Assembly: GCF_042477335.2 (NCBI RefSeq)
Contig: NC_091262.1
Span: 1,136,001-1,200,000 of the forward strand
Length of the DNA: 64,000 nucleotides
From: Ovis canadensis
Taxonomy: Eukaryota > Chordata > Mammalia > Artiodactyla > Bovidae
Direction of reading: 5' to 3'
Numbering within the stretch: the stretch's first letter is position 1; every line of letters starts with the position of its first letter. This document shows, in pieces, positions 16,546-36,500 of the stretch. Below the pieces are notes generated by a model that did no database searches, was not told the DNA's origin, and worked only from the letters and a program-made list of their open reading frames with translations. Position numbers and translations under genes: made by a program.

Positions 16546-16559
16546 CCTGCAAAACAAAA

Positions 16560-16974: not shown

Positions 16975-17044
16975 GGGTCATTCTTTTTTTATTCTGCCAC
17001 AGCTAACAGACAGAAAGTCAGTTGTCATAACTACTACTAACATA
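16975..17044 (-). pseudogene. tRNA-Gly pseudogene (mitochondrial origin)
   Basis: Directly after the COX3 remnant, the minus strand keeps ACAACTGACTT followed by TCTGTTAGCTG and ends in GAATAAAAAAAGAATG. This matches the anticodon-arm and acceptor end of mammalian mitochondrial tRNA-Gly at its normal place between COX3 and ND3. The cloverleaf is too damaged to be functional. Confidence 0.65.
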
Positions 17045-18254: not shown

Positions 18255-18346
18255 TCTTCCTGAACCAGGGATCAAACCCACATCACTTCCCCCTCCTGCA
18301 CTGGTAGGCAGATTTTTTATTTATCAACTGTGCCACCTAGGAATCG
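18255..18346 (-). mobile_element. CHR-type tRNA-derived SINE fragment, minus strand
   Basis: Reverse complement begins TTCCTAGGTGGCACAG, continues with AATCTGCCTACCAGTGCAGG and GGGTTTGATCCCTGGTTCAG. This is the tRNA-derived head (A and B box region) of an artiodactyl CHR-type SINE. Only the head remains. Confidence 0.8.
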
Positions 18347-18918
18347 ACATACATTTCAAGGACCACTGCCATCAGCTTCTACTGTTCATGACCAAAGTAG
18401 GAGAAACAACATTGGAAGAAGTACTCATAAGGGTACTCATAGGAAGTACTCATAAGTCAAGGAACTGTTATACTGGGTACTCTCGTTGTTACTGGGACAA
18501 GTCAGTTCCTCCGATGATGATGGGTATAACTGAAAAATTATTACAAATGCATGGGCTGCGATGTCTACGTGATAAATGTGTTCCTCTTATACTATTGCTT
18601 CAGGGATGCCTACTTCAGCATGAAGGAATGCACTTCAAGGGATGCCCGCTATTCCAGCTCAAGCAACAGATAGTGAAGTGCAGATCATTGTCCTTTGTTG
18701 AAAATAATCAGCACTTTGTCAACATAGGGAACATGCCAGAGGGACCCTTGGGATGGAACTCTAAAAACAGGTTGGGCCCTCTTTTTGCCAAGCCCTGCGA
18801 TAAAATACAAATCAGAAAAAGAAAAATAGCATCGGTTTTGTCAGGACTTCCTCATCTTTTCTTTCTCGGTAGCAGGAAGCAGACATTGAGGCCAGAGGAC
18901 TGCAGGATTTCATTGTGA
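18347..18918 (+). other. Unrecognised open stretch (226-codon frame from 18,238)
   Basis: A plus-strand frame runs from 18,238 to 18,918. Its first ~35 codons are antisense SINE sequence, so any real coding part would lie downstream. The rest shows no domain I recognise, no signal peptide and no clear codon bias. It contains a local duplication near 18,420-18,455 (GAAGTACTCATAA repeated). It may be an old mobile-element remnant or a random frame. I do not call it a gene. Confidence 0.3.
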
Positions 18919-19439
18919 ACTAACGTTGGGTGGGGTGGAAGCTCATCACTCTAGTAAGAATGTGGTTCAATAAAATGGAATTTCATTCACTTCATGGACA
19001 TAGAGTTCTATAATCCTTCATTAAGGAATTCAATAAGCTATATTTCCTTACACCTTCACAATCTCTTGGTTTACGAGAACATCAATTGCTAGTCCAGCAC
19101 TTATACAATGAGTGTTACAGGTAGTATGAATGTATAAATGATGATGAGCAATGACAGGAAGTTTATTTAATCTCTGTTTGAATTCTTGATTTTTTATATA
19201 ATTTTTTATAATATCCTTACAGATGTGAATATTTTACTGACATGTATAAATACACGTTGAGTAGTGCTATGATAACTCATAGTGTTGGCACAATAAATAT
19301 CATGGTTACTATGTGCTTTTCATATATTCCTTTTGAGATTCTCTTCCATTATACATTATCATAAGATATTTAATAGTTTCCTAACCTGTACAGTAGGTCC
19401 TTGTGGCTTCTTTTATATATAGTAATGTACTTGTTAATA
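18919..19439. other. AT-rich sequence, nothing recognised
   Basis: Low-complexity TA-rich DNA with no gene or identifiable repeat. Confidence 0.45.
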
Positions 19440-20100
19440 ATTCAAACAAAAACTGGTACACAAATACTCATAGTGACATTCACAATAGCTCAAAGGTAGA
19501 ACTCATTCAAGTGTCCGTTGGTGGGAGACTGAATATGCAACACAAGGTATATTCAGAAGCTTGAACGGTATTCCACCATACGAAAAAGTACATTAAATGG
19601 TGCTGCCACTCTGCAAGACATTACAGAAATGACTCCAAAACAAACACATGGAATAAATACATAGTTCGATTCCAATTCAAGCTATGTACCCAAAAGGATT
19701 GGGAAAGGGGGCTGAAAAAATGGATACTTCTTCCGTCATACTCACAACAGCATGATTCACACTGGCAAACAAACAGAAGTGATCTAAGTGTCCATGGCAG
19801 CCAATTCCATAAACAAACTGTGGTATACACACAATGGAATCTGATTCGGCCCTTCAAAGTCAGTAATTCTGACAATGCGACAATGTGGACAAACCTTATG
19901 GTCATTAGATCATGTGAAATAAACCAGACCAAGAAAAGACAAACGTTCTGTGATTCCACTCATATGAGATATCCAAACAAGTCAAATCTGTCAGAAATAG
20001 CAGAGAGTGATTCCGACCGATCGAAAAGAGTTCATGTTTCATGGACCTCAGTTTCCCTTGGAAAAACTGACTTCCCGTGATATCTCCAAAACCAATTAGA
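19440..20100 (+). mobile_element. LINE-1 3' region fragments
   Basis: Two overlapping copies of the L1 tail motif are visible. At 19,475-19,540 there is CATTCACAATAGCTCAAAGG and GTGTCCGTTGGTGGGAGA. At 19,745-19,980 there is AAGTGTCCATGGCAGCCA, ATACACACAATGGAATCTGA, AAATAAACCAGACCAAGAAA and TCCACTCATATGAGATATCC. This order is typical of the mammalian L1 ORF2 end and 3' UTR. Heavily mutated and non-functional. Confidence 0.75.
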
Positions 20101-20199
20101 CAAATAATTGGAAGCTATATCCAGTCAAATGAATGTAGACATAATGTTATATACAGTGTACACCAAACTCACTCAAACTTCTTAACAGACAAAAGGCAA

Positions 20200-20640
20200 A
20201 ACTGTATCTATGGTACCTCAGCTTAGCTTAAAACTGTATCTACAGTACCTCACTTCTGCTTATAAAATTTAACAACAACAACAACAACACACTAAAGTCT
20301 ATCCAAAAAAGGATATAAAACATATATAACATTAACTTTAAAGAATTAGACATTTAAACTGTGAAAAACCTTATTCACAAAACTTAAACACAAGCCACAG
20401 GAAAATATATTTATAAAATACATATCTGATAAAGGATTGTACTCCAAATATACCAAAAAATCTAGAACAATCTCATAAAAAATGTATACACCTAAACACC
20501 TGGCCTACAAAAATATAAAGATAGCAAATAAGCCTATCAAAAAGACTCAAAATCACATATCATTAGGAAATTACAAACTAAAATAACAGTGAGGTAGCAC
20601 TGCACACCTATTAGATCCAGTAAACTCAAAAAAAAAAAAC
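20200..20640 (+). mobile_element. LINE-1 ORF2 C-terminal fragment
   Basis: Contains L1 ORF2 landmarks: GGAAAATATATTTATAAAATACATATCTGATAAAGG (in part), then CCTATCAAAAAGACTCAAAA and AACAGTGAGGTAGCACTGCA, followed by the CACACCTATTAGATCCA block. The CAA microsatellite at 20,270-20,288 lies inside. A CHR-type SINE interrupts it directly after the A-run at 20,630. Confidence 0.75.
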
Positions 20641-20649
20641 GGGGGTAGG

Positions 20650-20775
20650 GCACAACTTCTCCGGTGGCTCAGTGGTAAAGAATCTGCCTGACAATGCAAG
20701 ACACTCTAGTTTGATCCCTTACCCCAGAAGATCCCACATGCCACAGAGAAACATAGCTGGATTTTTCCACAGCTA
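20650..20775 (+). mobile_element. CHR-type SINE fragment inserted in LINE-1
   Basis: TTCTCCGGTGGCTCAGTGGT, AAAGAATCTGCCTGACAATG, GTTTGATCCCTTACCC and AGAAGATCCCACATGCCACA form the head of an artiodactyl CHR-type SINE on the plus strand. L1 sequence is found on both sides, so the SINE is the younger insertion. Confidence 0.85.
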
Positions 20776-20799
20776 AACAAAGCTCACCTGTGACCTGAA

Positions 20800-20990
20800 T
20801 ACTATATGGCTAGCACTTACTAAACAGCTTTGAAAACGTCCAGACAAAAAGTATCACATGATTATATACAACAGCTCTACTTGTAATAACTAAAAACTTT
20901 CAAATATCAGGATGTCTTCAGTAGATGACAGTGTAAACAAATGGGGATACATCCAAAGTGAAGGGGAGCAAATGCTACCACAAAATATAC
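20800..20990 (+). mobile_element. LINE-1 fragment, continuation after SINE
   Basis: ACAGCTTTGAAAACGTCCAG, CTACTTGTAATAACTAAAAA and GATGACAGTGTAAACAAATG are recognisable as diverged L1 tail sequence (the segment before the ATGGAATATTACTCAGCCAT-type motif). It continues the interrupted L1 from 20,200. Confidence 0.6.
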
Positions 20991-21284
20991 CACCTCAGCA
21001 TGAGAATTAGTGGGACCCAATTAACTTTTTTTTTTAGAGGACACATGATCATCTCTGAAACCCAAGTTCAAGACAGCTCTTCTGTGAGTCACATTTACCA
21101 GAGAAATCTCATTTCAAAGGAATCCTCTCTATATGCCAGATAGAAGGATGAGACACAGTCTTTTGAAACTCTTTTTTCTTTTCTATCGATAGGGAAAGCT
21201 AAGCCGTAAATCTGCACAACAACCATACCCTTCCTTTCCTTTGGTTGTATCTGTAAAATATTTGTTTCTTTTTTAATTTGGCTG
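20991..21284. other. Unassigned spacer
   Basis: No gene or repeat recognised. A short T-run lies near 21,026. Confidence 0.4.
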
Positions 21285-21445
21285 CGCCAGGTCAACCTTC
21301 ATTGAGGTAAGCCAGATATTTAGCTACAACATGCAAATTCTCCTTTGTGGCATGGGAGATCTAGCTCTTGGATCAGGGAATGAACCTGGGCCTCCTTCTT
21401 TGGGAGTGTCCAGTCTCAGCCACTGGACCACCAGAAAGTGCCTGT
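21285..21445 (-). mobile_element. CHR-type SINE fragment, minus strand
   Basis: The reverse complement starts CTTTCTGGTGGTCCAGTGGC and contains CCCAGGTTCATTCCCTGATC, the A and B box parts of an artiodactyl tRNA-derived SINE. It continues with TCTCCCATGCCACAAAGGAG. Moderately diverged. Confidence 0.8.
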
Positions 21446-22329
21446 TTTGTTTTCAGATGAAGATGGAATCTAAGGTGATATCTTGGGCCATTTCAGTCAC
21501 TGACTCAGTTTCCTGAGTTTCTCCAAAGCACGCACAAGGTGCACATTATTAAACTGGTTTGCAAAACAAGAAAAGGTTGTCTGCTACAACACTGTATGCT
21601 TACAAATATCTAAATGGTAAATGGCATATTATTTATTTTTAATTACTATGGGGGGGGGGAGAAAGAATGCAGGATTCATACATGTTACCACATGAATAAA
21701 TATTAAAACCATCTTCAGTGAAAAAGAAATCCACATAGAAAAGGCCACCCAGAACCCTTATTCACCATGTCTGCTTTCAATCCATCAAGTTTGTCCAAAT
21801 AACTGAAAATCTCAGTAACACTCTAAATAAAGAAAAAAGGATGACGATGGAAACAAAAGATATATTCATACACTTGAACAATTGCTAAAAGTGGAAGTGG
21901 GGCAGTGGATTACATTATAATGTAGGTACCATATGATTTCCTGATTTTGGAGATTATGTGCTGGTTCTGCAGAAGGTACCCATTTTGGATAAAACACATA
22001 GAGTATTTTAGATGATGTGGCAAATGCTAGCACTTGTTCCCATTGCTAGGCATTTTCTGTACATTTTAAATGACTGGAAAGTATACTAGGTTTCAAAACA
22101 ACCATGTCAATACCACAAAAGAAATTTAGAGCAGACAGGCAGGAAACTTTCTGATACAGGCCAAGACTTACCCAGATGAAGTTCAAGGGAAGCTGCGATG
22201 CTCACTGCCCGTGAAGGAGTCCACGTGGAATGAAGAAGTAGTGTGGGAAGTCTATTAGTAACCACCATGTCTTGGGTCCTCTGGATGACCTACTGCAGGA
22301 GAAACAGATCTTACAGATAAAATGTTCCA
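21446..22329. other. AT-rich spacer with a G-run
   Basis: Contains a run of nine to ten G residues near 21,650. No coding region or named repeat is recognised. Confidence 0.45.
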
Positions 22330-23075
22330 CATCACTTCACAAAAAGTTGTTAGACTACATTCAGTAAAGCTGAATCATTTTGGATTAATTTACAATCATA
22401 AAATACTACCCTTTACAGTCCAAAAATCACTTGCATTTCTATACACTAATAACAATCAGAAAAAAATATTAAGAAAATCCCACTTAAATAAAACATCTAG
22501 CAACAAACTTAATCAAGAACATAAAAAACCAGTAGTCAGAAAACTAGAAGGCACTGATAAAGAAACCAAAGAAAATACAAACACACAGAAAATTATTCCA
22601 CGCTCATGCACTGGAACAATGAGGAATTAAAAGGTCCATTCCAACCAAAGTCATCAACAAATACACGGACTGCAATCACAAAATAATATTCAATGGCATT
22701 TTTCACAGAAATAGAAATATTCCTAATATTAGGCTGCTACTGTTGAACAGGACCTTAAACGGCCAAAAAGACTCTGAGAAAGAGGAACACAGCTGGAGGC
22801 ATCTTCCTATCCCTCTTCAAACTACATCACGGAGCTGTAGTGACCACCACAGTGAGGAACTGGCAGGAACACAGACACATGGACTCCAGGAGAGAATAGA
22901 GAGCCCAGAAACGAACCCACCTGTACATGGTCAGTTCCTGAAAATCAAACCAGGAACGAGCGAAGAGGAAAGGACAGTCTTCTCAAGAAACAGTGACAGG
23001 AAAATGGCCACCTACACGGAAGAACATCAGTGTTCATCCTCTACATCATCTAACGCAAATCTAACTGAAAACCCA
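22330..23075 (+). mobile_element. LINE-1 ORF2 fragment
   Basis: Ordered L1 ORF2 landmarks are visible: TTGCATTTCTATACACTAAT, a block with AGTCAGAAAACTAGAAGGCA and CTGATAAAGAAACCAAAGAA, and AATGGCATTTTTCACAGAAA. Next come AGCTGGAGGCATCTTCCTAT, AATAGAGAGCCCAGAAACGA and AAAGGACAGTCTTCTCAAG. These are parts of the reverse transcriptase C-terminal half. Frames are broken by indels and stops. Confidence 0.85.
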
Positions 23076-23484
23076 CCGCTTTGCACACGGAGCTCTTTCC
23101 CCCTGAGTCCTCTGAGATGGACCTCCAGTCAGCCCTCAGCTGGACACAGGAAACGTCTACTCCATCCTCATTTTTCGCTCTTGCAGCGCCTCCCTGCTGG
23201 TGGGCACTGAGGCAACCCTGCTCCTCTCAGCCTGGATGCAGCCCTGTTATCCAGAAGCCTGAGCCCTGATGGTCCTGAGGAGACAAAGCTCCCGCCAGCT
23301 GCTCACGGAGCAGAGTCTAAAGGCAAAGCGTCCTGGGCCCGCGGGTCAGAGGGGCCTTTGGCGCCCCCTGCGGGCCACAAGAGAAGAGCGGGCAGCCCGG
23401 TGCTCACAGACCTCAGAGGGCTCACCCAGAAGCAGCTCTGCTGCGAGCACTCAGACTGGAAGCCCAAACTGAAATGGAGCAGAA
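23076..23484. other. GC-rich segment between two LINE-1 parts
   Basis: About 400 bases of CpG-containing, GC-rich DNA lie between the L1 ORF2 fragment and an L1 3' end, unlike the AT-rich surroundings. Open frames (23,081-23,269 and 23,269-23,472) show no domain I recognise. It could be a fragment of a gene or of another repeat. It carries a CTCF-like site, listed separately. Confidence 0.45.
23361..23374 (-). promoter_or_regulatory. CTCF-like motif
   Basis: The minus strand reads CCCGCAGGGGGCGC. This matches the CTCF core consensus CCASYAGRKGGCRS at 13 of 14 positions. It lies in a CpG-containing segment. This is a motif match only; occupancy is unknown. Confidence 0.45.
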
Positions 23485-23975
23485 TAGCTCCATGACCCTC
23501 CGCAAAACATGGCTAAGGAACAATCAGAGCCTGCATGGAATGCAGCCATAAAAAGGAACACATTTGAGTTTGTTCTAATAAAGGGGAGGGAAGTCAGTCA
23601 AAGAGAGAAAAACATGGAATCTAGAAGGATGGTACTGACGAGTCTGTTCACAGAGCAGCAATGGAGGTGCAGACATAGAGAACAGACTTACAGACAAGGG
23701 TGGAGAACAAGAGGGAGAGGGTGAGATGAATGGAGAGAGCAGCATGGATGCAGGTACACCTACATTTGTAAATAGACAACCAATGGGAATTTGCTGTATG
23801 ATTCAGGGAACTCAAACTGGGGCTCAGTAGTAACCTGGAGAGGTGGGAATGCGTGCGAGGTGGGAGGGAGATTCAAGAGCAAGAGGACATAGGTACACCT
23901 AATGTGGATGTATGACAAATCAAACCAATATTGTAAAGCAATGATCAATCAACTAAAAAGAAATAACTTTTAAAA
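23485..23975 (+). mobile_element. LINE-1 3' end
   Basis: Contains TGCAGCCATAAAAAGGAACA, AGCAGCATGGATGCAGGTAC, CCAATGGGAATTTGCTGTAT, GGAACTCAAACTGGGGCTCA and TTGTAAAGCAATGATCAATC, then an A-run. This is the usual order of the bovine-type L1 3' UTR. With 22,330-23,075 it may derive from a single L1 disrupted by the GC-rich segment. Confidence 0.8.
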
Positions 23976-24206
23976 AATCTGAACATAAACACAAACTTTG
24001 CAACAAGGTAACTCCATTTTAAAAACTATAGAATTTTAGAAAACTACTAAAGTTCTACATGACCTTTGGTCTGGTAATCAGGTCTAACATACACAAAACA
24101 AGCCAACTTACCAAATTATGAATATAAATTAGTTAAAACATTGCCTTTTATCATTTCATACATTTACCCCGTGGAGGACCTTACTCGAGAGAACCAAAAA
24201 CAAACT
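23976..24206. other. Spacer, nothing recognised
   Basis: AT-rich sequence after the L1 A-tail. No gene or named repeat seen. Confidence 0.4.
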
Positions 24207-24700
24207 GTTAAATGAACCACGGACCACCCACCCTGGCCAGGCAACAGAGAAAAGAAAACACTTGCAGGAGTCATCTTACAACAGGAGGCCCTGGGAAGGA
24301 ACAAGGAACGAACAAGCTACCACCAACCAGAATTCTGGAGAGGTCAGGTGATGGGAGGCTCCAGTTCAGAGGTCCTACCAACCTCCCAGGATCCACATTG
24401 CTGGAATCCATCTCAGCTGAGTGATGCGTGTGCCCCCAAGAGAGATCCCAATTCAGAATGCCTGGCAAGAGACAAACCAGAAATTAACCCAATGACCATA
24501 AAACCTGAGACTGTGAGCCACGTGACAGAGTGGTTCTCTCCGTTTCCCTCACCCTCCTGCCCTCCACCCCGGCAGCCCTTCCCAATAAAGCCTCTCGCTT
24601 GGACAGCACTCCTCTCCTCAGACAACTCATTGCCCAGTGTCAGACAAGAACTCACTCTCAAGCCCTGGGAAGGGATCCCCCTTCCTTCATCAAAAGCAAT
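24207..24700 (+). mobile_element. Class I-like ERV LTR
   Basis: Begins with TGTTAAATGAACC and has the organisation of a gammaretrovirus-type LTR. The block CCATAAAACCTGAGACTGTG lies ahead of the AATAAA signal at 24,583-24,588 (CCCAATAAAGCCTCTCGCTT), followed by a C-rich end. No internal viral genes adjoin it, so it is a solo LTR or an LTR fragment. It is truncated near the following BOV-A2 insertion. Confidence 0.7.
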
Positions 24701-24737
24701 ATCCAGGAGAAAATATCTTCAAAACGTTATCTTGTAG

Positions 24738-25033
24738 AGAAGGAAATGGCAATGGCAGCCCGCTCCAGTACCATTGCCTGGAGAATCCCATGGACAGAGA
24801 AGCCTGGTAGGCTGCAACCCCGGGGTCACTAAGAGACGGACACGACTTCACTGAGTGACTTCACTTTCACTTTTCACTTTCATGCACTGGAGAAGGACAT
24901 GGCAACCCACTCCAGTGTTCTTGCCTGGAGAATCCCAGGGACAGAGGAGCCTGGTAGGCTGCTGTCTATGGGGTCGCGCAGAGTCAGGCACGACTGAAGC
25001 GACGCAGCCGCAGCAGCAGCAGCAGCAGCAGCA
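24738..25033 (+). mobile_element. BOV-A2 SINE with AGC microsatellite tail
   Basis: Two BovA monomers in direct order. The first starts GAGAAGGAAATGGCAATGGC and has CTGGAGAATCCCATGGACAG. The second starts GGAGAAGGACATGGCAACCC and has CTGGAGAATCCCAGGGACAG and GGGGTCGCGCAGAGTCAGGC. The element ends in AGC triplets at about 25,007-25,033. BOV-A2 is specific to ruminants, so this is a strong taxonomic marker. Confidence 0.95.
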
Positions 25034-25115
25034 GAGAAGGAAATGGCACCACCTGCAGTACTCTGGTCTCAGAAATCCCAGGGATAGAGGAGCTTGGTGG
25101 GCTACAGTCCAAAAG
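25034..25115 (+). mobile_element. Extra BovA monomer
   Basis: GAGAAGGAAATGGCACCACC, CAGAAATCCCAGGGATAGAG and GAGCTTGGTGGGCTACAGTC form a third BovA monomer directly after the AGC tail of the BOV-A2 element. It is more diverged than the upstream pair. Confidence 0.75.
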
Positions 25116-25284
25116 CAGGGCATTTCTGATGGGAGGAAACAGTCCCAGGGAAGCTGAGCTGCTCACCAAAGGCCCCAGAGCTTTGGATAGCACACCAGAG
25201 CTGGGGCTGAGGATTCCCAGCTGCCATGCCTCTTGATCCTGGCCTCTTTCACTAGATACATGTGTGGAAAACTAGAATCTAAAA
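25116..25284. other. Spacer
   Basis: No gene or named repeat is recognised between the BovA monomer and the next SINE. Confidence 0.4.
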
Positions 25285-25603
25285 TATGCCCTGGTGGTTC
25301 CATAGTAAAGAATCCACCTGCCAGTGCTGGAGATGCATGTGCGATCCCTAGGATGGGAAGATCCCACATCCTATGGAGCCCGTGTGCCACAACAGCCGAG
25401 CGAGCCTGTGCTCTAGATCCTGGAAGCCACGATGCCGAGTTCACATGCTGCAGCCACTGAAGCCCGTGAGCCTGTGCCCCTCAACAAGAGGAGACACTGC
25501 AGTGAGAAGCCTGCAAACCACTAGTTATGGCCCATGCTCACCAAAACTAGAGAAAAGCCCACACACAAAGATGCAACACAGCCAACAATCAATAAAACTG
25601 TTT
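25285..25603 (+). mobile_element. CHR-type SINE, near full length
   Basis: Starts CCCTGGTGGTTCCATAGTAA, continues GAAGATCCCACATCCTATGG, CGTGTGCCACAACAGCCGAG, ACACTGCAGTGAGAAGCCTG and ACTAGAGAAAAGCCCACACA, and ends near AGCCAACAATCAATAAAA. This is the complete order of the long artiodactyl CHR-type SINE on the plus strand. Confidence 0.88.
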
Positions 25604-26047
25604 TCCTAAAAAAATGCATATCTGACAAAGAAACTGTACTCAAATTGTCCAAGAACACTAGAGCAAACAAGCCCATTCATAATTGGTAGTGACTGAAATA
25701 GGCCACTGAGGGTATACTGATAGTAAACTATCATAGAAAAACATACTCAAGATACTGGTGCAATGCATGCAGAGCCCCCTTTGAAAGACAATCTGACAGG
25801 TTTTTTTTTTTCAGTAACCACATGGGACAAGCACTGAATTCTGTGTATGACAAGCGGTGGAAGCCAGGTATCTTACCATTGGAAGGCAAAGTTACAGATA
25901 AACAAAAGGAAACGTTACAATGTCCATGTCGTGGTGGATCAGGTTGGAGACATCACAAATTACCTTTAACTGAATATGTTCAAAGGTGAGCATATTGAGC
26001 TCCTACATGTATGTTTTAAATATCATTCTCTAATAAAAGGGAACAGG
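25604..26047. other. Probable decayed LINE-1 and spacer
   Basis: The first part (ATCTGACAAAGAAACTGTAC and following) resembles diverged L1 ORF2 sequence. A T-run lies near 25,801. The rest is unassigned. Confidence 0.4.
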
Positions 26048-26318
26048 AAACATCTCTGATGGCCCAGTGGTAAAGAATCTGCCTACCGATGCAGGGAACA
26101 CGGGTTCAATCCCTGTGTAGAAGATTCCACACACCCAGGGACAACGAAGCCCTTGAACAACTCTTGAAGTTTGCATGCTCCAGAGCCCAAGTTCTGCAAA
26201 CAGAGAAAGCACTGCAATGAGAAGCCATGGCACAGCAACTAGAGGGTAGCCTCTGCTCACTACAACTAGACAAACGAGCAATAAAGACCCAGCACAGTCA
26301 AAAATAATGTAATGTTTA
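26048..26318 (+). mobile_element. CHR-type SINE, near full length
   Basis: CATCTCTGATGGCCCAGTGG, TAAAGAATCTGCCTACCGAT, GGGTTCAATCCCTGTGTAGA, GCACTGCAATGAGAAGCCAT and GACCCAGCACAGTCAAAAAT occur in the canonical CHR order on the plus strand, with an A-rich end. Confidence 0.88.
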
Positions 26319-26399
26319 AAAAAAGGACAGTTCTTTGAAGAAATGACTGAGACTAGGGGTGAGACTGTAAATATATGAGCCAGGGTCATCTTAAATTAT

Positions 26400-26705
26400 G
26401 AGAAATTAAAGAAACTAAAGACAACTATCAAGCTGTCCAAACTGATACAAATGAATGATGACACAGTGTTATCTGTATACACCAGCAAATAACAATCTGA
26501 AAGGGAATTTAAACAAACAATTCCCTTTCAATCATATCAACAGTAATAAAAGACTTTGCTATGGACAGAATGAGGATGACAAGACTGGCACACTGGAAAT
26601 GATACATGATTGCTGAAAAATACCCTAAAGACATGGACAGATACTCCATAGTGATGAAAAGGCTTCAGTTGGCAATACCGTGGAAGGCATCTTCAATCTG
26701 AAATG
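26400..26705 (+). mobile_element. LINE-1 ORF2 fragment
   Basis: The run with TATACACCAGCAAATAACAA, TCTGAAAGGGAATTTAAACA, AATTCCCTTTCAATCATATC and GACATGGACAGATACTCCAT follows the L1 ORF2 segment that also occurs at 22,440-22,720. Diverged and non-coding. Confidence 0.65.
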
Positions 26706-26729
26706 AAGATTCAATATGAATTACAAAAG

Positions 26730-27510
26730 GCTGAAACGTGGCTGCTAAACCACAAAAGATGCCAGCATTCTCGGCCTCCAGAGAATTCAATCCAGGGCAA
26801 GTGAAGAAGCTTGATGGCTCAGAGGTTTTCTGTTTAAAAGTTTTATTAAAGTATAAAAGAGATCGAGAGAGCTGCTGACATAGACATTAAAAGGGGGAAG
26901 AAAGAGTACCCCCTGCTAGTCTTTAGCCAGATGTTATAGAGCCACTAGCAGTCTGCTAATGAAAGAAAGACAATGTCTCAGAGAGTGGCACCAGGCCCCT
27001 CACCCACAGCAAGCATTGAGATAACATTGGCAGCAGATGAGTCATCCCAGGCCATAAAATGATGGACATGAATCTTGAAGAAAGGCAGATTTCCAAGCAA
27101 ATATATAGTTTCATTCACATAGATTAAGAGAACAAGGTATGAGTAAAACATACTGGTTTGTCAAGTCGTTTCTGAGCCTTTAGGGGGAAGTGACCTGAAG
27201 ACAGAGCCTTGGGTAAATACATAGCACATTAGCATACCTTAAGACAAACATTTCCATAAGAAAAATGCATTGCTTAGTTCAAGGTTTGAGAAAAGTTAAA
27301 TTCAGGTGGAGCCAGGAGTGGTCATGGCAACACAGAATTTTCAGAGAAACCTCCTTTTAAATTTGTATCAAGATGGAGAAAAAAAAATGCAGCACTCTTT
27401 TGTCTCCTCCTGCCTCTTAAGACAGAGAAAAAAACGTCTGACACTTGCAGTCTATTTTCTCTGGCTGGAGACCCCTGGCCTTCCTGCCTGTTATCCTCTC
27501 CAGGCCTGTA
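26730..27510 (-). mobile_element. Solo ERV LTR-like element, copy 2 of an inverted pair
   Basis: The reverse complement is colinear with 14,300-15,035 along almost the whole length. Shared blocks are GCAGGAAGGCCAGGGGTCTC, TGCAAGTGTCAGAC, TTGATACAAATTTAAA, CCCCTAAAGGCTCAGAA, GACTTGACAAACCAGTATG, GTGGGTGAGGGGCC and a TTTAATAAAACTTT signal, then GGATTGAATTCTCTGGAGGC at the end. It is somewhat longer than copy 1 in places. No viral genes adjoin it. Confidence 0.78.
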
Positions 27511-27534
27511 GGAAGCAACACACTAGGCTGCTTG

Positions 27535-28000
27535 GGAAAACCGCGCGGGTCTGAGCTTTATGCAAAGGGGTAAAGCGGCAAAACCCTTGGCCCCAAAGGC
27601 GAGGCTTTTCTGCGACCGCCATTTTAGTCGGCTCCGAGACTGCAAACAAAGAGGGCAGAATACATGGTTCCCTGCTCCACCCAGTCCGAGTTCCCTTACC
27701 TGTGGCCCACAGCCCTGCGCTCTACTCGCTGGATGCCAATCGACGGGGACCCAGGAGCCCACGAAACGAGCATTCCCAGCTGCAATGGCGAGCCCTGAGA
27801 GCACAACTGGGAAGCCTGGCCCCCGACGCGCCGCCATGTTCATCCCGCCCCAGACCCGCTCACGTGAGCCGCGCTCCTGACCAGCCGCCCAGGCTCGCCC
27901 CGCCCCCGACGCGCTCACGGTGCGCCCCACCCCCACGCCCCCTTCCAGGACAGGCCCGCGGGACCGCGACTGCCTCCAGGTGAAACACAAGGACAAGCAA
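27535..28000. promoter_or_regulatory. CpG island with promoter-type motifs
   Basis: About 460 bases of CpG-rich DNA in otherwise AT-rich surroundings. YY1-type motifs stand at 27,616-27,625 (CCGCCATTTT) and 27,831-27,840 (CCGCCATGTT). A CACGTG E-box lies at 27,861-27,866, and Sp1-type CCCCGCCCC sites at about 27,897-27,906. This is the composition of a TATA-less housekeeping-type promoter. Direction is undecided, but the exon signals on the minus strand suggest leftward transcription. Confidence 0.65.
27700..27843 (-). CDS. Candidate first coding exon, minus strand (unrecognised, partial)
   Basis: On the minus strand an ATG in strong context (AACATGGCG) lies at 27,837, with another in-frame ATG at 27,843. 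From the inner ATG the frame is open for exactly 46 codons and ends in CAG at 27,700, directly before a strong donor (GTAAGG). That is the structure of a short first exon with a phase-0 intron. The peptide begins MAARRGPGFPVV and has a weakly hydrophobic segment; I recognise no family. No downstream exon is identified, and an LTR on the same strand lies 200 bases further on. It could be a lncRNA, an orphan promoter or a truncated gene copy. Confidence 0.35.
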
Positions 28001-28116: not shown

Positions 28117-28171
28117 GCCAGACCCTGGCGGGCAGAGGCTTGAAGAGGGTCCGGGAGCTCTGTCAGAACAG

Positions 28172-28263
28172 CAAGCCTCTGTAGCGTAGCGGTTAGGTGC
28201 ACTGGTGAGCAGGCAGACGATGGTCTGTAAGTCAGGAGTTCAAGTCCGCAGCTTAACTCTTTT
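28172..28263 (+). ncRNA. tRNA-like pol III cassette, copy 1
   Basis: An A box at 28,182-28,192 (TAGCGTAGCGG) fits TRGYNNANNNG fully. A B box at 28,238-28,246 (GTTCAAGTC) fits GWTCRANNC fully, 56 bases from A-box start to B-box start. A TTTT terminator lies at 28,260-28,263. The T-arm and acceptor arm do not pair well, so it is not an intact tRNA; a tRNA pseudogene or SINE head is likely. Transcription is untested. Confidence 0.45.
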
Positions 28264-28334
28264 GCTCTTAGGGGGCGGGGGACAGCAACAGGCGGGACTT
28301 AGACCAGAAACGTTTATTTTTATTTTAGAGGTTT

Positions 28335-28510
28335 ATTGTTTAGCTTAGGGTTAGGGTTCGGGCAACCCCCCAACTTGTTCAGGTTCGGGTTCAGGGTTAG
28401 GGTTAGAATTTGGGGATCCCCCCTCTTCTAAGAGTTCGGGTTTGGGTTAGGGTTCATGTCAGGGTCAGGGTTCGGGTTACGGTTAGGGTTAGCATTAGTG
28501 TTGGGGTTAC
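28335..28510 (+). repeat. TTAGGG-variant telomere-like DNA, copy 1
   Basis: Repeated TTAGGG and TTCGGG hexamers (for example AGCTTAGGGTTAGGGTTCGG from 28,344), interrupted by GGGCAACCCCCC and by GGGGATCCCCCC. The G-rich strand is the plus strand, the opposite of the array at 12,839-13,180. Too degenerate and interrupted to act as a telomere. Confidence 0.85.
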
Positions 28511-28550
28511 AGCTTAAAGTGAGCCCTAATAGGGCCCATAGTTCTTTATT

Positions 28551-28925
28551 AGCCTGCCCTGGCGGGCCGAGGCTTGAAGAGGGTTCGGGAGCCCTGCTGA
28601 AAGCAGTAAGCCTCTGTGGCATAGGGGTTAGGCGGGCCAGTAGGCAGGCAGACTATGGCCTCTAAATCAGGAGTTCAAGTCTCTAGTCTGACCTTTTCGC
28701 TTTTAAGGGGCAGGGGACTGCAAGAGCCAGGGCTTAGACCAGAAAATTTTTTTATTTTAGAGGTTTATTGTTAAGCTTAGGGTTAGGGTTCGGGCAACCC
28801 CCCCCACTTGTTAGGGTTCGGGTTCAGGTTAGAATTCGGGGACCCCCCTCTTCTTAGAGTTCGGGGCGTTACCATTAGGGTTATAGGTTAAAGTGAGGGC
28901 TAAGAGGGTCCATAGTTCTTTATTA
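28551..28925 (+). repeat. tRNA-like/TTAGGG composite unit, copy 2
   Basis: Begins GCCTGCCCTGGCGGGC and follows the same order as copy 1, but its telomere-like part is shorter, giving 375 bases. TTAGGG-type DNA is at about 28,775-28,850, followed by a GGGTCCATAGTTCTTTATTA end. Confidence 0.75.
28607..28697 (+). ncRNA. tRNA-like pol III cassette, copy 2
   Basis: A box at 28,617-28,627 (TGGCATAGGGG) and B box at 28,673-28,681 (GTTCAAGTC) again fit both consensuses fully, with the same 56-base spacing. TTTT lies at 28,694-28,697. The T-arm keeps four of five pairs (AGGAG with CTCTA). The boxes, spacing and terminator are all retained although the sequence between them has diverged from copy 1. 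Confidence 0.45.
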
Positions 28926-28965
28926 GCCTGCCCTGGTGGGCTGAGGCTTGAAGAATGCCTGGGAG
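28926..28965 (+). repeat. Truncated third tRNA-like/TTAGGG unit and junction to satellite
   Basis: GCCTGCCCTGGTGGGC starts a third copy that stops after about 40 bases and passes directly into satellite. The bases GGAG at 28,962-28,965 are expected in both the composite unit (TTCGGGAGCC) and the satellite (CCGGAGGCTG), so the join shows 4-base microhomology. Confidence 0.7.
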
Positions 28966-29500
28966 GCTGACTCGTGGGCGCCCAGCAGCTGCCTCACACA
29001 CGTAGCTTCCCTAGCCCTCTGCTCCCCAGCAGGGGGGTGTGCAGCTGGTTGGGGCCTGCCCCTGCCTGTCTGGGCTCCCGCCCACAGCCCCAGCTCAGGG
29101 GGAGCAGCCCCTGAGCCAAGACCTGCAGCAGGAACAGAGCGTGCCCCCCCCCCCCCGGAAGCCAAGTGAACAGCATGCGGGGAAAAGAGCCTACTCCAGG
29201 GAAGAAAGGCAGCCCAGCCGCGTGAGGAAGCCCAGCCGCGAGCAGCTGCAAGCCCTGCTTGGGCGGAGCCCAGTGCGACTTCAGTACCACAGAGATTCAG
29301 CTCTCGTTAGGGGCCCGATCTAGCAGAGTTACTGGCGGGAGGTTGCTCTGCCCTGGGCAAGCCTTGCCCAGACTTGCATCGCTGCTAGGCTTCCTGCCCA
29401 GGAAGGAGCACGCTGCGCGAGGCTGGGAGACGCCACTGGCGCCTTCCTGGCCTCAGTTCCTCTTCTGCCTTGCCTTTGCACCAAAGCCCCAGGCCTCCTT
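28966..29500 (+). repeat. Left-edge A-type monomer of block 2
   Basis: Has the A diagnostics CAGCAGCTGCCTCACACACG and GTGTGCAGCTGGTTGGGGCC. It is diverged, with a C-run near 29,143-29,155 and a duplicated AGCCGCG block near 29,217-29,242. It passes to subtype B from about 29,500. Confidence 0.75.
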
Positions 29501-30599
29501 GGGGAGGGCTTAGATGCCAGTGGGTTGCACACTGCCAAGGGCTCCAGCAGTGTGAGCTCTGTCAGACGGAAGGGAAGGGCAGGTGCAGGGCTCCTCCAGC
29601 GGTTGCTTGGCCGCCCAGGCTCAGCGCCTAACGGAGAGCACCAGGCTCCCAGGGCCCCTGGCTGGGGTCTGCAGCCCCGCACACCCGGAGGCTGACTCCG
29701 TGGGCGCCCAGCAAGTGCATGACAGACGTAGGTTCCCTAGCACTCTCCTCCCCAGCAGAGACATCTGCAAGTGGTTGGGGTCTGATCCTGCCTGTCTGGG
29801 TTCCCACCCACAGCACCAACTCAGGGGAAGCAGCCCCTGAGGCAAGACCTGCTGGAGGAGCCCTGCGCCCCCGCCTGATCGGCGAGTGCACAGCCAAGAG
29901 GGAAGCGAGCCACCTCGGGGAAAGAGGAGGCAGCCCAGCCCCGTCAAGCTGAAATCCCTGCTTGCCCAGGCCAAGTGTGCCTCCAGTACAGCAGAGTTCC
30001 AGCTCTGATCAGAGGCCCGATCTGGCAGAGTTCCTGGCGCGAGGCTTCTCTGCCATGGGCGAGCCTTGCCCAGACTTGCCTTGCTTTTACGCTACCTCCC
30101 CAGGAAGGAGCATGCTGCGCAAGGCTGGGAGAAGCCACTGGAGCCTTCCTGGGCTCAGCTCCGCTCCTCCCTTGCCTTTGAACCTAGGCCCCAGGGGTCC
30201 TTGGGGATTGCTTAGGGCCTGGTGGATTGCACACTGCCAAGGGCTCCAGCAGTGAGAGCTCTGTGAGAGGGAAGGGAAAGGTAAGTGCAGGAATCCTCGA
30301 GCGGTTGCTTGGCAGCCAAGACTCAGCGGCTCACGAAGAGCACCAGGCTCCCAGGGCCCCTGGCTGGGGTCTGCAGCCCCGCACACCTGGAGGCTGACTC
30401 CGTGGGCGCCCAGCAAGTGCATGACAGACGTAGATTCCCTAGCACTCTCCTCCCCAGCACAGACATGTGCCGGTGGTTCGGGCCTGATCCTGCAAGTCTG
30501 GGTCCCGCCCACAGCCCCAACTCAGGGAAGCAGCCCCTGAGGCAAGACCTGCTGGAGGAGCCCAGCTACCTCGCCTGATTGGCGAGTGCACAGCCAGCA

Positions 30600-33500
30600 G
30601 GGAAGCGAGCCTCCTCGGGGGAAGAGGAAGCTGCCCAGCCCCTTCAGGCTGAAAGCCCTGCTTGCCCGAGCGAAGTGTGCCTCTGCCTGGGCTCCCGCCC
30701 CCAGCCCCAGCTCAGGGCAAGCAGCCCCTGAGCCAAGACCTGCAGGAGGGGCAGAGCGCCCCCGCCTGGAAGCCGAGTGAACAGCAGGGGGAGGCGAGCC
30801 TCCTCCAGGGAAGAAGAGGCAGCCCAGCCGCCTGTGGCTCTAGCCCTACTTGGCTGGGCCCCAGTGCGCCTCCAGTACGGCAGAGCTCCAGCTCTGCTCA
30901 GAGGCCCGATCTGGCATAGTTGCTGGCACGAGGATGCTCTGCTCTGGGCGAGCCTTGCCCAGACTTGGCTCGCTGATAGGCTTCCTGCCCAGGAAGGAGC
31001 AGGCTGCACGAGGCTGGGAGATGCCGCTGGCGCCTTCCTGGTGTCAGCTCCGCTCCTGCCTTGCCTTTGCACCTTGGCCCCAGGAGTCCTTGGCAAGGGC
31101 TTAGGGGCCGGTGGCTTGCACACTGCCAAGGGCTCCAGCAGTGAGAGCTCTGTGAGAGGGAAGGGAAGGGCAAGTGCAGCGCTCCTCCAGCGGTTCCTTG
31201 GCCGACAAGACTCAGCGCCTCACGGAGACCACCAGGCTCCCAGGGCCCCTGGCTGGGGTCTGCAGCCCCTCACACCCGGAGGCTGATTCCGTGGGCGCCC
31301 AGCAAGTGCATGACAGACGTAGGTTCCCTAGCACTCTCCTCCCCAGCACAGACATGTGCCGGTGGTTCCGGCCTGATCCTGCGTGTCTGGGTTCCCGCCC
31401 ACAGCCCCAACTCAGGGGAAGCAGCCCCTGAGGCAAGACCTGCTGGAGGAGCCCTGCTCCCCCGTCTGATTGGCGAGTGCACAGCCAGCAGGGAAGCGAG
31501 CCTCCTTGGGGGAAGAGGAGGCAGCCCAGCCCCGTCAAGCTGAAAGCCGTGCTCGCCGGAGCCAAGTGGGCCTCCAGAACAGCAGAGCTCCAGCTCTGCT
31601 CAGAGGCCCGATCTGGCAGAGTTCCTGGCGCAAGGCTTCTCTGCCATGGGCGAGCCTTGCCCAGACTTCCCTTGCTTTTAGGCACCCTCCCCAGGAAGGA
31701 GCAGGCTGCACGAGGCTGGGAGATGCCACTGGCGCATTCCTGGCCTCAGATCCACTCCTGCCTTGCCTTTGCACCTAGGCCCCAGGCTTCCTTGGGAGTG
31801 CTTAGGGGCTTGTGGGTTGCACACTGCCAAGGGCTCCAGCAGTGAGAGCTCTGTCAGACGGAAGTGAAGGAAACCTGCAGGGCACCTCCAGCGGTTGTTG
31901 GCCGCCCAGACTCAGCGCCTCACGAAGAGCACCAGGCTCCCAGGGCCCCTGGCTGGGGTCTGCAGCCGCGCACATCCGGAGGCTGACTCCATGGGCGCCC
32001 AGCAAGTGCATGACAGACGTAGGTTCCCTAGCACTTTCCTCCCCAGCAGAGACATGTGCAGGTGGTTCGGGCTTGTTCCTGCATGTCTGGGTACCCGCCC
32101 ACAACCCCAACTCAGTGGAAACAGCCCCTGAGTCAAAACCTGCTGGAGGAGCCCTGTGCCCCCGCCTGAACAGCGAGTGTACAGCCAGCAGGGAAGTGAG
32201 GCTCCTTGGGGAAGAGGAGGCAGCACAGCTCCATCAAGCTGAAAGCTCTGCTTGCCAGGGTCTACGTGAGCCTCCAGTACAGCAGAGCTCTAGGTCTTCT
32301 CAGAAGCCCCATCTTGCAGAGTTCCTGTCGCGAGGCTGCTCTGCCATGGGCGAGACTTGCCCAGACTTGCCTTGCTTTTAGGCACCCTCCCCAGGAAGGA
32401 GCAGGCTGCGCGAGGCTGGGAGACGCCACTGGCGCCTTAATGTCCTCAGCTCTGCTCCTGCCTTGCCTTTGCACCTAGGCCCCAGGCGTCCTTGCGGAGG
32501 ACTTAGGGGCCGGTGACATGCACACTGCCAGGGCTCCAGCAGGGAGAGCTCTGTGAGAGGGAAGGGAAGGGCAAGTGCAGGGATCCTCGAGCGGTTGCTG
32601 GGCCGCCCAGACTCATCGCCACACGGAGAGCTCAGGCTCCCAGGGCCCCTGGCTGGGGTCTGCAGCCCCGCACACCTGGAGGCTGACTCCGTGGGCGCCC
32701 AGCAAGTGCATGACAGACATAGGTTCCCTAGCACTCTCCTCCCCAGCACAGACATGTGAGGGTGGTTGGGGCCTGATCCTGCAAGTCTGGGTCGCGCCCA
32801 CAGCCCCAACTCAGGGAAGCAGCCCCTGAGGCAAGACCTGCTGGAGGAGCCCTGCTCCCCCGTCTGATTGGCGAGTGCAGAGCCAGCAGGGAAGCGAGCC
32901 TCCTCAGGGGAAGCGGAGGCCTCCCAGACCCTTCAAGCTGAAAGCCCTGCTTGCCCGAGCCAAGTGTGCCTCCAGTAGAGCAGGCTCCAGCTCTGCTCAG
33001 AGGCCCGATCTGGCAGAGTTCCTGGTGCGAGGCTGCTCTGCCCTGGGCGAGACTTGCCCATACTTGCCTTGCTTTTAGGCACCCTACCCAGGAAGGGGCA
33101 TGCTGGGCGAGGCTGGGAGATGCCACTGGCGGCTTCCTGGCCTCAGCTCCGCTCCTACATTGCCTTTGCACCTAGGCCCCAGGCGTCCTAGGGGAGGGCT
33201 TAGGGGCTGGTGGGTTGCACACTGCCACGGGCGCAGGCAGTGAGAGCTCTGTCAGAGGGAAGGGAAGGGCACCTGCAGGGCTCCTCCAGCGGGTGCTTGG
33301 CCGCCCAGACTCAGGGCCTCACGAAGAGCACCAGGTTCCCAGGGCCCCTGGCTGGGGTCTGCAGCCCCGCACACCTGGAGGCTGACTCCCTCGGCGCCCA
33401 GCAAGTGCATGACAGACGTAGGTTCCCTAGCACTCTCCTCCCCAGCACAGACATGTGCCGGTGGTTCGGGCCTGATCCTGCGTGTCTGGGTTCCCGCCCA

Positions 33501-36500
33501 CAGCCCCAACTCAGGGGAAGCAGCCCCTGAGGCAAGACCTGCTGGAGGAGCCCTGCTCCCCCATCTGATTGGCGAGTGCACAGCCAGCATGGAAGCGAGC
33601 CTCCTCGGGGGAAGAGGAGGCAGCCCAGCCCCGTCAAGCTGAAAGCCGTGCTTGCCGGGCCAAGTGTGCCTCCAGTACAGCAGAGCTCCAGCTCTGCTCA
33701 GAGGCCCGATCTGGCAGAGTTCCTGACGCGAGGCTTCTCTGCCATGGGGGAGCCTTGCCCAGACTTGCCTTGCTTTTATGCTCCCTCCTCAGAAAGGAGC
33801 CGGCTGCGCAAGGCTGGGAGATGCCACTGGCGCCTTCCTGGCCTCAGCTCCGCTCCTGCCTTGCCTTTGCACCTAGGCCCCAGGCGTCCTAGGGGAGGGC
33901 TTAGGGGCTTGTGGGTTGCACACTGCCAAGGGCGCCGGCAGTGAGAGCTCTGTCAGAGGGAAGGGAAGGGCACCTGCAAGGCTCCTCCAGCGGTTGCTTG
34001 GCCGCCCAGACTCAGGGCCCCACGGAGAGCACCAGGCTGCCAGGGCCCCTGGCTGGGGTCTGCAGCCCCGCACACCTGGAGGCTGACTCCGTGGGCGCCC
34101 AGCAAGTGCATGACAGACGTAGGTTCCCTAGCACTCTCCTGCCCAGCAGAGACATGTGCCGGTGGTTCGGGCCTGATCCTGCGTGTCTGGGTTCCCGCCC
34201 ACAGCCCCAACTCTGGGAACTCAGCCCCTGAGTCAAAACCTGCTGGAGGAGCCCTGCTCCCCCGTCTGATTGGCGAGTGCACAGCCAGCAGGGAACCGAG
34301 CCCCCTCGGGGGAAGAGGAGGCAGCCCAGCCCCGTCAAGCGGAAAGCCCTGCTTGCCCGGAGCCAAGTGAGCCGCCTGTAAGGCAGAGCTCTAGCTCTGC
34401 TCAGAGGCCCGATCTGGCAGAGTTCCTGTCGCGAGGCTGCTCTGCCATGGGCGAGACTTGCCCAGACTTGCCTTGCTTTTAGGCACCCTCCCCAGGAAGG
34501 AGCAGGCTGCGCGAGGCTGGGAGATGCCACTGGCGCCTTCCTGGCCTCAGCTCCGCTCCTGCCTTGCCTTTGCACCTAGGCCCCAGGGGTCCTAGGGCAG
34601 GGCTTAGGGGTTGGTGGGTTGCACACTGCCAAGGGCGCCGGCAGTGAGAGCTCTGTCAGAGGGAAGGGAACGGCACCTGCATGGCTCCTCCAGTGGTTGC
34701 TTGGCAGCCAAGACTCAGCGCCTCACGAAGAGCACCAGGCTCCCAGGGCCCCTGGCTGGGGTCTGCAGCCCCGCACACCTGGAGGCTGACTCCGTGGGCG
34801 CCCAGCAAGTGCATGACAGACGTAGGTTCCCTAGCACTCTCCTCCCCAGCACAGACATGTGCCAGTGGTTGGGGCCTGATCCTGCAAGTCTGGGTCCCGC
34901 CCACAGCCCCAACTCAGGGAAGCAGCCCCTGAGGCAAGACCTGCTGGAGGAGCCCTGCTACCCCGCCTGATTGGTGAGTGCACAGCCAGCAGGGAAGCGA
35001 GCCTCCTTGGGGGAAGAGGAGGCCGCCCAGCCCCTTCAAGCTGAAAGCCCTGCTTGCCCGAGCCAAGTGTGCCTCCAGTAGAGCAGGCTCCAGCTCTGCT
35101 CAGAGGCCCGATCTGGCAGAGTTCCTGGCGCGAGGCTGCTCTGCCCTGGGCGAGCCTTGCCCAGACTTGCCTTGCTTTTAGGCACCCTACCCAGGAAGGA
35201 GCCGGCTGCGCGAGGCTGGGAGATGCCACTGGCGCCTTCCTGGCCTCAGCTCCGCTCCTGCTTTTCCTTTGCACCTAGGCCCCAGGCGTCCTGGGCAGGG
35301 CTTAGGGGCTGGTGGGTTGCACACTGCCAATGGCCCAGGCAGTGAGAGCTCTGTCAGAGGGTAGGGAAGAGCAAGTGCAGGGCTCCTCCAGCGGTTCCTT
35401 TGCCGCCAAGGCTCAGCGCCGCATGGACAGAACCAGGATCCCAGGGCCCCTGGCTGGGGTCTGCAGCCCCGCACACCAGGAGGCTGACTCCCTCGGCGCC
35501 CAGCAAGTGCATGACAGACGTAGGTTCCCTAGCACTCTCCTCCCCAGCACAGACATGTGCCGGTGGTTCGGGCCTGAACCTGCGTGTCTGGGTTCCCGCC
35601 CACAGCCCCAACTCAGGGGAAGCAGCCCCTGAGGCAAGACCTGCTGGAGGAGCCCTGCTCGCCCGTCTGATTGGCGAGTGCACAGCCAGCATGGAAGCGA
35701 GCCTCCTCGGGGGAAGAGGAGGCTGCCCAGCCCCTTCAGGCTGAAAGCCCTGCTTGCCCGAGCGAAGTGTGCCTCTGCCTGGGCTCCCGCCCCCAGCCCC
35801 AGCTCAGGGCAAGCAGCCCCTGAGCCAAGACCTGCAGGAGGGGCAGAGCGCCCCCGCCTGGAAGCCGAGTGAACAGCAGGGGGAGGCGAGCCTCCTCCAG
35901 GGAAGAAGAGGCAGCCCAGCCGCCTGTGGCTCTAGCCCTACTTGGCTGGGCCCCAGTGCGCCTCCAGTATGGCAGAGCTCCAGCTCTGCTCAGAGGCCCG
36001 ATCTGGCATAGTTGCTGGCACGAGGATGCTCTGCTCTGGGCGAGCCTTGCCCAGACTTGGCTCGCTGAAAGGCTTCCTGCCCAGGAAGGAGCAGGCTGCA
36101 CGAGGCTGGGAGATGCCGCTGGCGCCTTCCTGGTGTCAGCTCTGCTCCTGCCTTGCCTTTGCACCTTGGCCCCAGGAGTCCTTGGCAAGGGCTTAGGGGC
36201 CGGTGGCTTGCACACTGCCAAGGGCTCCAGCAGTGAGAGCTCTGTGAGAGGGAAGGGAAGGGCAAGTGCAGCGCTCCTCCAGCGGTTCCTTGGCCGACCA
36301 GACTCAGCGCCTCACGGAGACCACCAGGCTCCCAGGGCCCCTGGCTGGGGTCTGCAGCCCCTCACACCCGGAGGCTGATTCCGTGGGCGCCCAGCAAGTG
36401 CATGACAGATGTAGGTTCCCTAGCACTCTCCTCCCCAGCACAGACATGTGCCGGTGGTTCGGGCCTGATCCTGCGTGTCTGGGTTCCCGCCCACAGCCCC

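What the first reader, a model, noticed from the sequence alone, without database searches (positions are those of the whole stretch)
28117..28965. Composite repeat that couples a tRNA-like pol III cassette to TTAGGG-variant DNA
Two tandem units and a stub join a tRNA-like cassette to telomere-like sequence next to a satellite array. Both cassettes fit the A-box and B-box consensuses completely, with identical 56-base spacing and a T4 run 14 or 13 bases after the B box, although the intervening bases have changed. Retention of all three pol III signals in both copies hints at function, or at recent amplification of a transcribed element. If transcribed readthrough occurred, it would give TERRA-like RNA with a tRNA-like head. 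I do not recognise this unit as a named repeat.
Basis: partly seen in the sequence, partly recalled or inferred. Interest (0 to 1): 0.75.

Follow-up and report, generated by a model that had tools for sequence, protein, structure and literature searches.

The report
Sheep chromosome-end repeat with tRNA-type boxes
This is one copy of a repeated block found near one end of the one-armed chromosomes of a sheep-like genome; its repeat joins tRNA-type promoter boxes to decayed telomere sequence, and it is most likely a passenger of chromosome-end exchange, with an unproven hint that the boxes are or were active.

Summary
In detail: two ~430-bp units plus a stub, each unit with complete A box, B box and T4 at 56-base spacing, joined to TTAGGG variants and abutting a 701/702-bp satellite. 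The "tRNA" part is only the boxes: no tRNA model hit, cloverleaf or convincing tRNA similarity. Close copies are not dispersed like a SINE: every listed copy lies in the first 2 Mb of C4-C26 of the window's own (sheep-like, inferred) genome, except one at C1:121.98 Mb. On C18 the end reads telomere, ~15-kb segment, CpG-rich stretch, units A-B-C, ~2 kb degenerate TTAGGG, satellite. The window copy is truncated, and its breakpoint into the satellite recurs on 23 of 23 acrocentrics, so these ends appear homogenised between chromosomes. Boxes are not strictly kept: 10 of 10 distinct C units have an imperfect B box; 5 of 25 distinct B units have lost a box. T runs precede the TTAGGG part, so a TERRA-like RNA with a tRNA-like head is unlikely; the CpG-rich stretch is the better promoter candidate. 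Unexpected: copy-to-copy variation peaks over the cassette in A and B units, not in C units, as transcription-associated mutagenesis would predict. That novel reading is testable and unproven.

The parts
1..12803 (.). 702-bp, GC-rich satellite array (SatII-like), left
   Evidence: period 702, GC 0.66; repeats of the right-hand array
12839..13250 (-). degenerate telomere-like DNA, CCCTCA/CCCTGA/CCCTAA on the + strand
   Evidence: TRF rows 12860-13089; sequence read; 12895-14855 matches the C18 end at 90%
13251..27480 (.). ~15-kb subtelomeric segment, same as at the C18 end and in the C1 copy (parts compared)
   Evidence: C18 28-34 kb 96.6% to 20883-25991 and 96.3% to 25984-26827; C1 94.0% to 24432-27386 counting gaps
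27540..27965 (.). CpG-rich stretch, candidate promoter; YY1-like words at 27616 and 27831 (motif recalled)
   Evidence: GC 0.66, CpG o/e 0.82 against 0.28 in the segment and 0.41/0.35 in the satellite; 33 of its 37 CpG shared with the C1 copy
28117..28550 (+). unit A: head, box cassette, T-rich linker, TTAGGG-variant part, tail
   Evidence: alignment with unit B
28182..28192 (+). A box of unit A, TAGCGTAGCGG
28238..28246 (+). B box of unit A, GTTCAAGTC
28260..28263 (+). T4 of unit A
28551..28925 (+). unit B, with a shortened TTAGGG-variant part
   Evidence: alignment
28617..28627 (+). A box of unit B, TGGCATAGGGG
28673..28681 (+). B box of unit B, GTTCAAGTC
28694..28697 (+). T4 of unit B
28926..28965 (+). 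head of a third unit, cut off by the satellite; breakpoint shared by 23 of 23 acrocentrics
28962..62681 (.). 701-bp satellite array (SatII-like), right, with at least one short interruption near its end

Best explanation
The feature is a truncated copy of a subtelomeric module shared by the acrocentric chromosomes of what is probably an Ovis genome. In its fuller form the module runs, from the chromosome end inwards: CCCTAA telomere, ~15-kb segment, CpG-rich stretch, two to four ~430-bp units (A, B, sometimes a second B, C), a few kb of degenerate TTAGGG-type repeats, 702-bp satellite. Each unit couples a pol III-type box cassette to telomere-variant DNA because it arose at an old chromosome end, where a box-bearing element lay next to decaying telomere repeats and the two were duplicated together by unequal exchange (inferred). 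The module was then amplified inwards with the satellite (copies 27.8-27.9 kb apart on C22) and is homogenised between the 23 acrocentrics by exchange or conversion between non-homologous ends (the sharing is shown, the process is inferred). The boxes descend from a tRNA-type promoter (inferred); their present activity is not shown.
For: Genome search: window is G000:C18:1136001-1200000; 23 full-length copies at 99-100% on 22 acrocentrics (C7 not among the 40 scored of 211 candidates), all +. The composite/satellite junction motif occurs once on each of C4-C25 and twice on C18: 22 exact matches and one, on C10, with one mismatch; 0 reverse, control 0. C26 has the same breakpoint with one extra base and a different satellite monomer after it. 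Box 22-mer: 293 exact + and 0 - in 2.97 Gb (control 0 and 0); of the 100 listed, 99 lie on C4-C11 within 1.93 Mb of the contig start and 1 on C1. C18 starts with CCCTAA (1-6000 read) and has the colinear segment at 28-34 kb, units A-B-C at ~35.3-36.5 kb, degenerate array to ~38.5 kb, then satellite. The C1 copy has the same order with two units. Spacing on C22.
Against: The species is inferred from the numbering of acrocentrics, not named by any tool. The stretch between the telomere read at C18:1-6000 and the segment was not read continuously, and only C18 was read at its very end. Centromere positions were not established. Placement of near-identical ends depends on the assembly. A purely passive history does not by itself explain why variation peaks in the cassette of A and B units.
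Confidence: 0.72

Rival explanations
1. The cassette is a working (or recently working) pol III unit, transcribed into a ~90-nt RNA in the germ line, and the TFIIIC bound there marks a boundary between telomeric and satellite chromatin.
For: Complete boxes in all 23 distinct A units and 20 of 25 distinct B units. Cassette-body changes exceed flank in A (19/62 nt vs 14/117 nt, P 0.009) and B (27/62 vs 6/117, P 4e-8) but not in C, whose B box is imperfect (2/62 vs 5/117). Half the variants of a 715-nt stretch around unit A fall in 100 nt over the cassette (18 of 36, P 3e-7, bins chosen after seeing the profile). Human tRNA genes show raised mutation in immediate flanks, attributed to transcription-associated mutagenesis (PMC8113476, one passage read).
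Against: Recent box changes are as frequent per site as body changes (7/16 vs 35/62, P 0.70). Without CpG sites the A-unit excess vanishes (6/56 vs 12/107). No tRNA fold. No RNA or ChIP data here. The C contrast rests on 10-11 distinct sequences with few changes in all.
Confidence: 0.2
2. The segment is a fossil chromosome end: an old end (segment, units, degenerate TTAGGG pointing right) fused to the satellite of another chromosome and was later capped by a new telomere, leaving telomere-like DNA facing outward on both sides.
For: CCCTAA-type on the left and TTAGGG-type on the right of the same segment in the window and on C18. TTAGGG against centromeric satellite is the structure at Indian muntjac fusion sites (PMC2760882, passages).
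Against: The degenerate array could equally come from inversion or duplication at the same end; I had no outgroup sequence.
Confidence: 0.25
3. The boxes are chance matches in a subtelomeric repeat and never were a pol III promoter.
For: 0.05 pairs with T4 per resampled window, so chance is not excluded over a whole genome; box positions are not unusually slow within the unit (32 of 141 slid sets are as slow); tRNA similarity beyond the boxes is weak.
Against: The A-box consensus fits in all five deep lineages although the rest of the cassette differs by 23-45% between them; box positions are slower than random cassette positions (P 0.012); the D-loop-like GGTTAG after the A box is also kept in them (read).
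Confidence: 0.2

Closest known systems
Shared ~35-kb subtelomeric segment of dog telocentric autosomes (PMC13103737, passages read)
   Same: Repeat-rich segment between the short-end telomere and centromeric satellite, shared between chromosomes
   Different: No box-bearing or TTAGGG-bearing tandem unit in the passages read; sequence not compared
Cattle autosome short-end order: telomere, 93-bp SATVII with SINE/LINE/simple repeats, SATII, SATIV (PMC12663436, passages read)
   Same: Telomere, then a repeat-bearing zone, then SATII
   Different: Tandem Repeats Finder lists no 93-bp array in this window; sequence not compared
Goat centromeric SatII, 702 bp, said to match sheep SatII (PMC11579321, passages read)
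   Same: Period 701/702; high GC
   Different: Sequence identity to a named SatII record not tested
Human CpG-island TERRA promoters (PMC6600276, start of abstract in the listing)
   Same: CpG-rich stretch upstream of TTAGGG-type DNA in sense
   Different: Here it faces a degenerate inner array, not the terminal telomere; no expression data
[quoted passage not shown] its boundary role is recalled)
   Same: Tandem units carrying pol III-type promoters
   Different: True tRNA genes there; only boxes here
Indian muntjac telomere-satellite I fusion sites (PMC2760882, passages read)
   Same: TTAGGG and TTCGGG blocks against centromeric satellite
   Different: Satellite I rather than a 702-bp satellite; the main text has 0 uses of 'tRNA'

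Membership tests
tRNA gene | tRNA covariance model / ARAGORN hit | tested here: not met
   0 hits; no tRNA row at E up to 5 in 28000-29000
tRNA gene | cloverleaf fold | tested here: not met
   MFE folds of the two cassettes are not cloverleaves, z 0.03 and -1.47
tRNA gene | A and B boxes with T run | tested here: met
tRNA-derived SINE | many dispersed copies | tested here: not met
   361 + and 17 - box 22-mers at <=2 mismatches in 2.97 Gb (control 0 and 3); 100 of 293 exact ones listed, clustered. Relatives more than 2 mismatches away would not have been seen
tRNA-derived SINE | tRNA-similar head beyond the boxes | tested here: inconclusive
tRNA-derived SINE | target-site duplications and 3' tail | not tested
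   units are in tandem; no solo copy was seen
Telocentric short-end subtelomeric segment | between short-end telomere and satellite | tested here: met
   C18 end only
Telocentric short-end subtelomeric segment | shared between non-homologous chromosomes | tested here: met
TERRA promoter | CpG island upstream of TTAGGG in sense | tested here: met
   sequence only, and the TTAGGG there is degenerate
TERRA promoter | RNA starting there and containing UUAGGG | not testable with these tools
   no expression data
Caprine/ovine SatII | ~702-bp monomer | tested here: met
Caprine/ovine SatII | sequence identity to the named record | not tested
   record not compared

The most novel reading that the evidence does not exclude
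Every acrocentric end of this sheep-like genome carries tandem pol III units embedded in decayed telomere DNA, active in the germ line; their transcription leaves a mutation hotspot over the cassette that is absent in units whose B box has decayed, and TFIIIC there separates telomeric from satellite chromatin and may bring non-homologous ends together for exchange.
Probability: 0.13. Interest if true: 0.75.

Novelty: new member of a known kind. Interest (0 to 1): 0.45.

Why it matters
It gives a sequence-level marker, with a shared breakpoint, for exchange between all 23 acrocentric ends, the kind of region that takes part in Robertsonian fusions; the C1 copy, at 121.98 Mb of a chromosome inferred to be metacentric, looks like a relic of such a fusion. 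If the box cassette proves active, it would link pol III, chromosome ends and local mutation rate in a mammal.

Tried and rejected
Rejected: dispersed SINE, as far as close copies go; canonical tRNA gene; pol III readthrough into TTAGGG (T runs in between); A-B gene conversion as the main source of cassette variation (6 of 23 B body variants and 3 of 11 A body variants match an allele of the other unit or of C1 unit 1); protein-coding origin, from Pfam on 7 of the 26 listed ORFs (one search lists them): one COX3 piece at 17040-17453, E 2.7e-6, and one row at E 0.1 below its cut-off.

Led nowhere: viral contigs patterns and genome contigs patterns, 0 hits each; these collections hold no ruminant genomes as such, so no outgroup was tested. 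One search is a bacterial-type promoter/terminator scan and was not used. One search put three C-type units in the B set; its recent-change counts are superseded (its deep comparison uses one sequence per lineage and stands). One search failed in part and was rerun. The C12-C16 subset alone has little power: B 5/62 vs 1/106, P 0.03; A 2/62 vs 1/106, P 0.56; C one distinct sequence. In the B profile I left out the three last bins (28869 onward, 68 of 106 variants), where the window-type deletion makes copies of different structure misalign. Where the 17 reverse hits lie was not seen. Paper searches for a description of such a unit listed none that I recognised from titles and abstract starts; most subscription papers are not held, and the domestic sheep T2T paper was seen only in reference lists.

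Full report
What is there. The window holds two tandem units and the head of a third, each unit with a full A box, B box and T4, the two box pairs 56 bases apart start to start, followed by TTAGGG/TTCGGG-type DNA. Units A and B are 89% alike in the head, 74% in the cassette, 86% in the linker, 92% in the telomere-like part and 87% in the tail, gaps excluded; 60 of the 75 gap or mismatch-free-less columns that are gaps lie in the telomere-like part, that is, unit B has lost much of it. Left and right lie GC-rich arrays of period 702 and 701, which fit goat SatII (702 bp; PMC11579321, passages) by period and GC; sequence identity to a named record was not tested. The 15-kb stretch 12.8-28.1 kb starts with degenerate CCCTCA/CCCTAA DNA, contains two diverged copies in opposite orientation of what I read as an LTR (14346-15020 and 26748-27461, 75% alike; no repeat library was at hand) and ends with a CpG-rich stretch 27540-27965 (CpG o/e 0.82 against 0.28 in the rest).

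Where it lies. The window is G000:C18:1136001-1200000 of a 2.97-Gb genome in 42 contigs. Hits fall on C4-C26, the acrocentric numbers of sheep (chromosomes 4-26 acrocentric, 1-3 submetacentric in bighorn: PMC12747268, passages); Ovis is my inference. Of 40 scored candidates (211 found), 23 places are full-length at 99-100%, on 22 acrocentrics. The composite/satellite breakpoint motif occurs once on each of C4-C25 and twice on C18 (23 matches, 22 exact and C10 with one mismatch, 0 reverse); C26 has it with one extra base and another satellite monomer after it. So 23 of 23 acrocentrics share one breakpoint. Seven of the eight loci compared (L001-L008, of the 23) are 99.6-100% alike over 3.8 kb; the C26 locus is 94% to the others, with ~380 gap columns. 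The box 22-mer has 293 exact forward and no reverse match; 100 are listed, 99 on C4-C11 within 1.93 Mb of the contig start and one on C1 at 121.98 Mb. At up to two mismatches it has 361 forward and 17 reverse matches, control 0 and 3; I did not see where the reverse ones lie. A search with the second C1 unit gave 119 matches from 40 scored candidates of 165, all +, on C1 and 12 acrocentrics.

The full module. C18 begins with CCCTAA (1-6000 read). The segment is colinear there (28-34 kb, 96.6% in its longest piece), then units A, B, C, then ~2 kb of degenerate TTAGGG/TTTGGGG, then satellite from ~38.5 kb. Copies on C4 near 32 and 67 kb (L010, L012) show A-B-C and A-B-B'-C. C1 has the same order with two units and ~3.5 kb of degenerate array up to ~121.9816 Mb. 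Thus the window copy lacks unit C and the degenerate array. The telomere-like part of the unit points away from the short-end telomere. Copies recur every 27.8-27.9 kb on C22. Between window and C1 the segment is 95.5-99.5% alike in 200-nt bins from 24440 to 28039, unit A 89% and unit B 73%, so the units turn over faster than their surroundings, or different units are being compared.

Is it tRNA, SINE, pol III? No Rfam or ARAGORN hit; folds are not cloverleaves; with the boxes held fixed, similarity to ten recalled tRNAs is weak. Copy number and clustering exclude an ordinary SINE among close copies. T runs would stop a pol III RNA before the telomere-like part. Across 60 distinct units (from 173 hits, some of them the same place read twice), A keeps both boxes in 23 of 23, B in 20 of 25, C in 0 of 10 (the A box fits, the B box has one mismatch), C1 in 1 of 2. 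Over five deep lineages, box positions change less than the cassette body (mean 0.25 vs 0.97, P 1.4e-4) but not less than the flanks (0.44, P 0.26). Against 14 random cassette positions the boxes are slow (P 0.012), but sliding the box set along the unit, 32 of 141 positions are as slow. In recent changes boxes and body do not differ (7/16 vs 35/62, P 0.70). So there is no sound sign of present selection on the boxes.

The unexpected part. Variation between copies peaks over the cassette. Changes in the body (62 nt) against flank (117 nt): A 19 vs 14 (P 0.009), B 27 vs 6 (P 4e-8), C 2 vs 5. By 25-nt bins, 18 of 36 variants of a 715-nt stretch fall in the 100 nt at 28160-28259 (A, 15 distinct sequences), and 28 of 38 in the corresponding 100 nt, 28594-28693, of the first 300 nt of B (32 distinct sequences; the last three bins left out, see Tried and rejected) (one search's P of 4e-7 for B depends only on those counts). 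The bins were chosen after seeing the profile. Without CpG sites B keeps the excess (14/53 vs 2/112, P 7e-6); A does not (6/56 vs 12/107), nor does C show one (2/60 vs 3/111). With the later loci and a stricter flank: A 11/62 vs 7/106, P 0.048; B 23/62 vs 4/106, P 3e-7; C 2/62 vs 4/106. The copies are related and the tests treat sites and changes as independent, so the P values are optimistic; A, B and C differ in number and probably in age. Conversion from the other unit explains only a minority. Transcription-associated mutagenesis at tRNA genes (PMC8113476, passage; the primary paper was not held) could give this pattern; a sequence-intrinsic hotspot could too.

Verdict. A real, well-defined, chromosome-end repeat module; its placement and sharing between chromosomes are the firm result. 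It belongs with the shared short-end segments of dog (PMC13103737, passages) and cattle (PMC12663436, passages). High similarity of sheep and cattle acrocentric ends is already reported in general (PMC12212074, passages). The box-bearing unit itself I did not find described. Function as a pol III unit is possible, not shown.

Noticed in passing
window 17040-17453, - strand: Stop-to-stop ORF with a cytochrome c oxidase subunit III match (Pfam E 2.7e-6), probably a nuclear copy of mitochondrial DNA inside the subtelomeric segment.
   Followed up: no
window 14346-15020 and 26748-27461: Two LTR-like copies (my reading), 75% alike, in opposite orientation near both ends of the segment.
   Followed up: no
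L009 and L044; C1:121,977,716-121,985,000: Copy of the module with degenerate TTAGGG array and satellite in the interior of C1, possibly a relic of a Robertsonian fusion.
   Followed up: partly
window 62228-62349 and about 63049-63174: A short AT-rich stretch that interrupts the satellite recurs about 0.8 kb further on, just outside the array (seen).
   Followed up: no
window 27616 and 27831: Two YY1-like words (CCGCCATNTT) in the CpG-rich stretch (motif recalled).
   Followed up: no
C22:889,822-1,030,104: Module copies at a regular 27.8-27.9-kb spacing, a higher-order tandem block.
   Followed up: no
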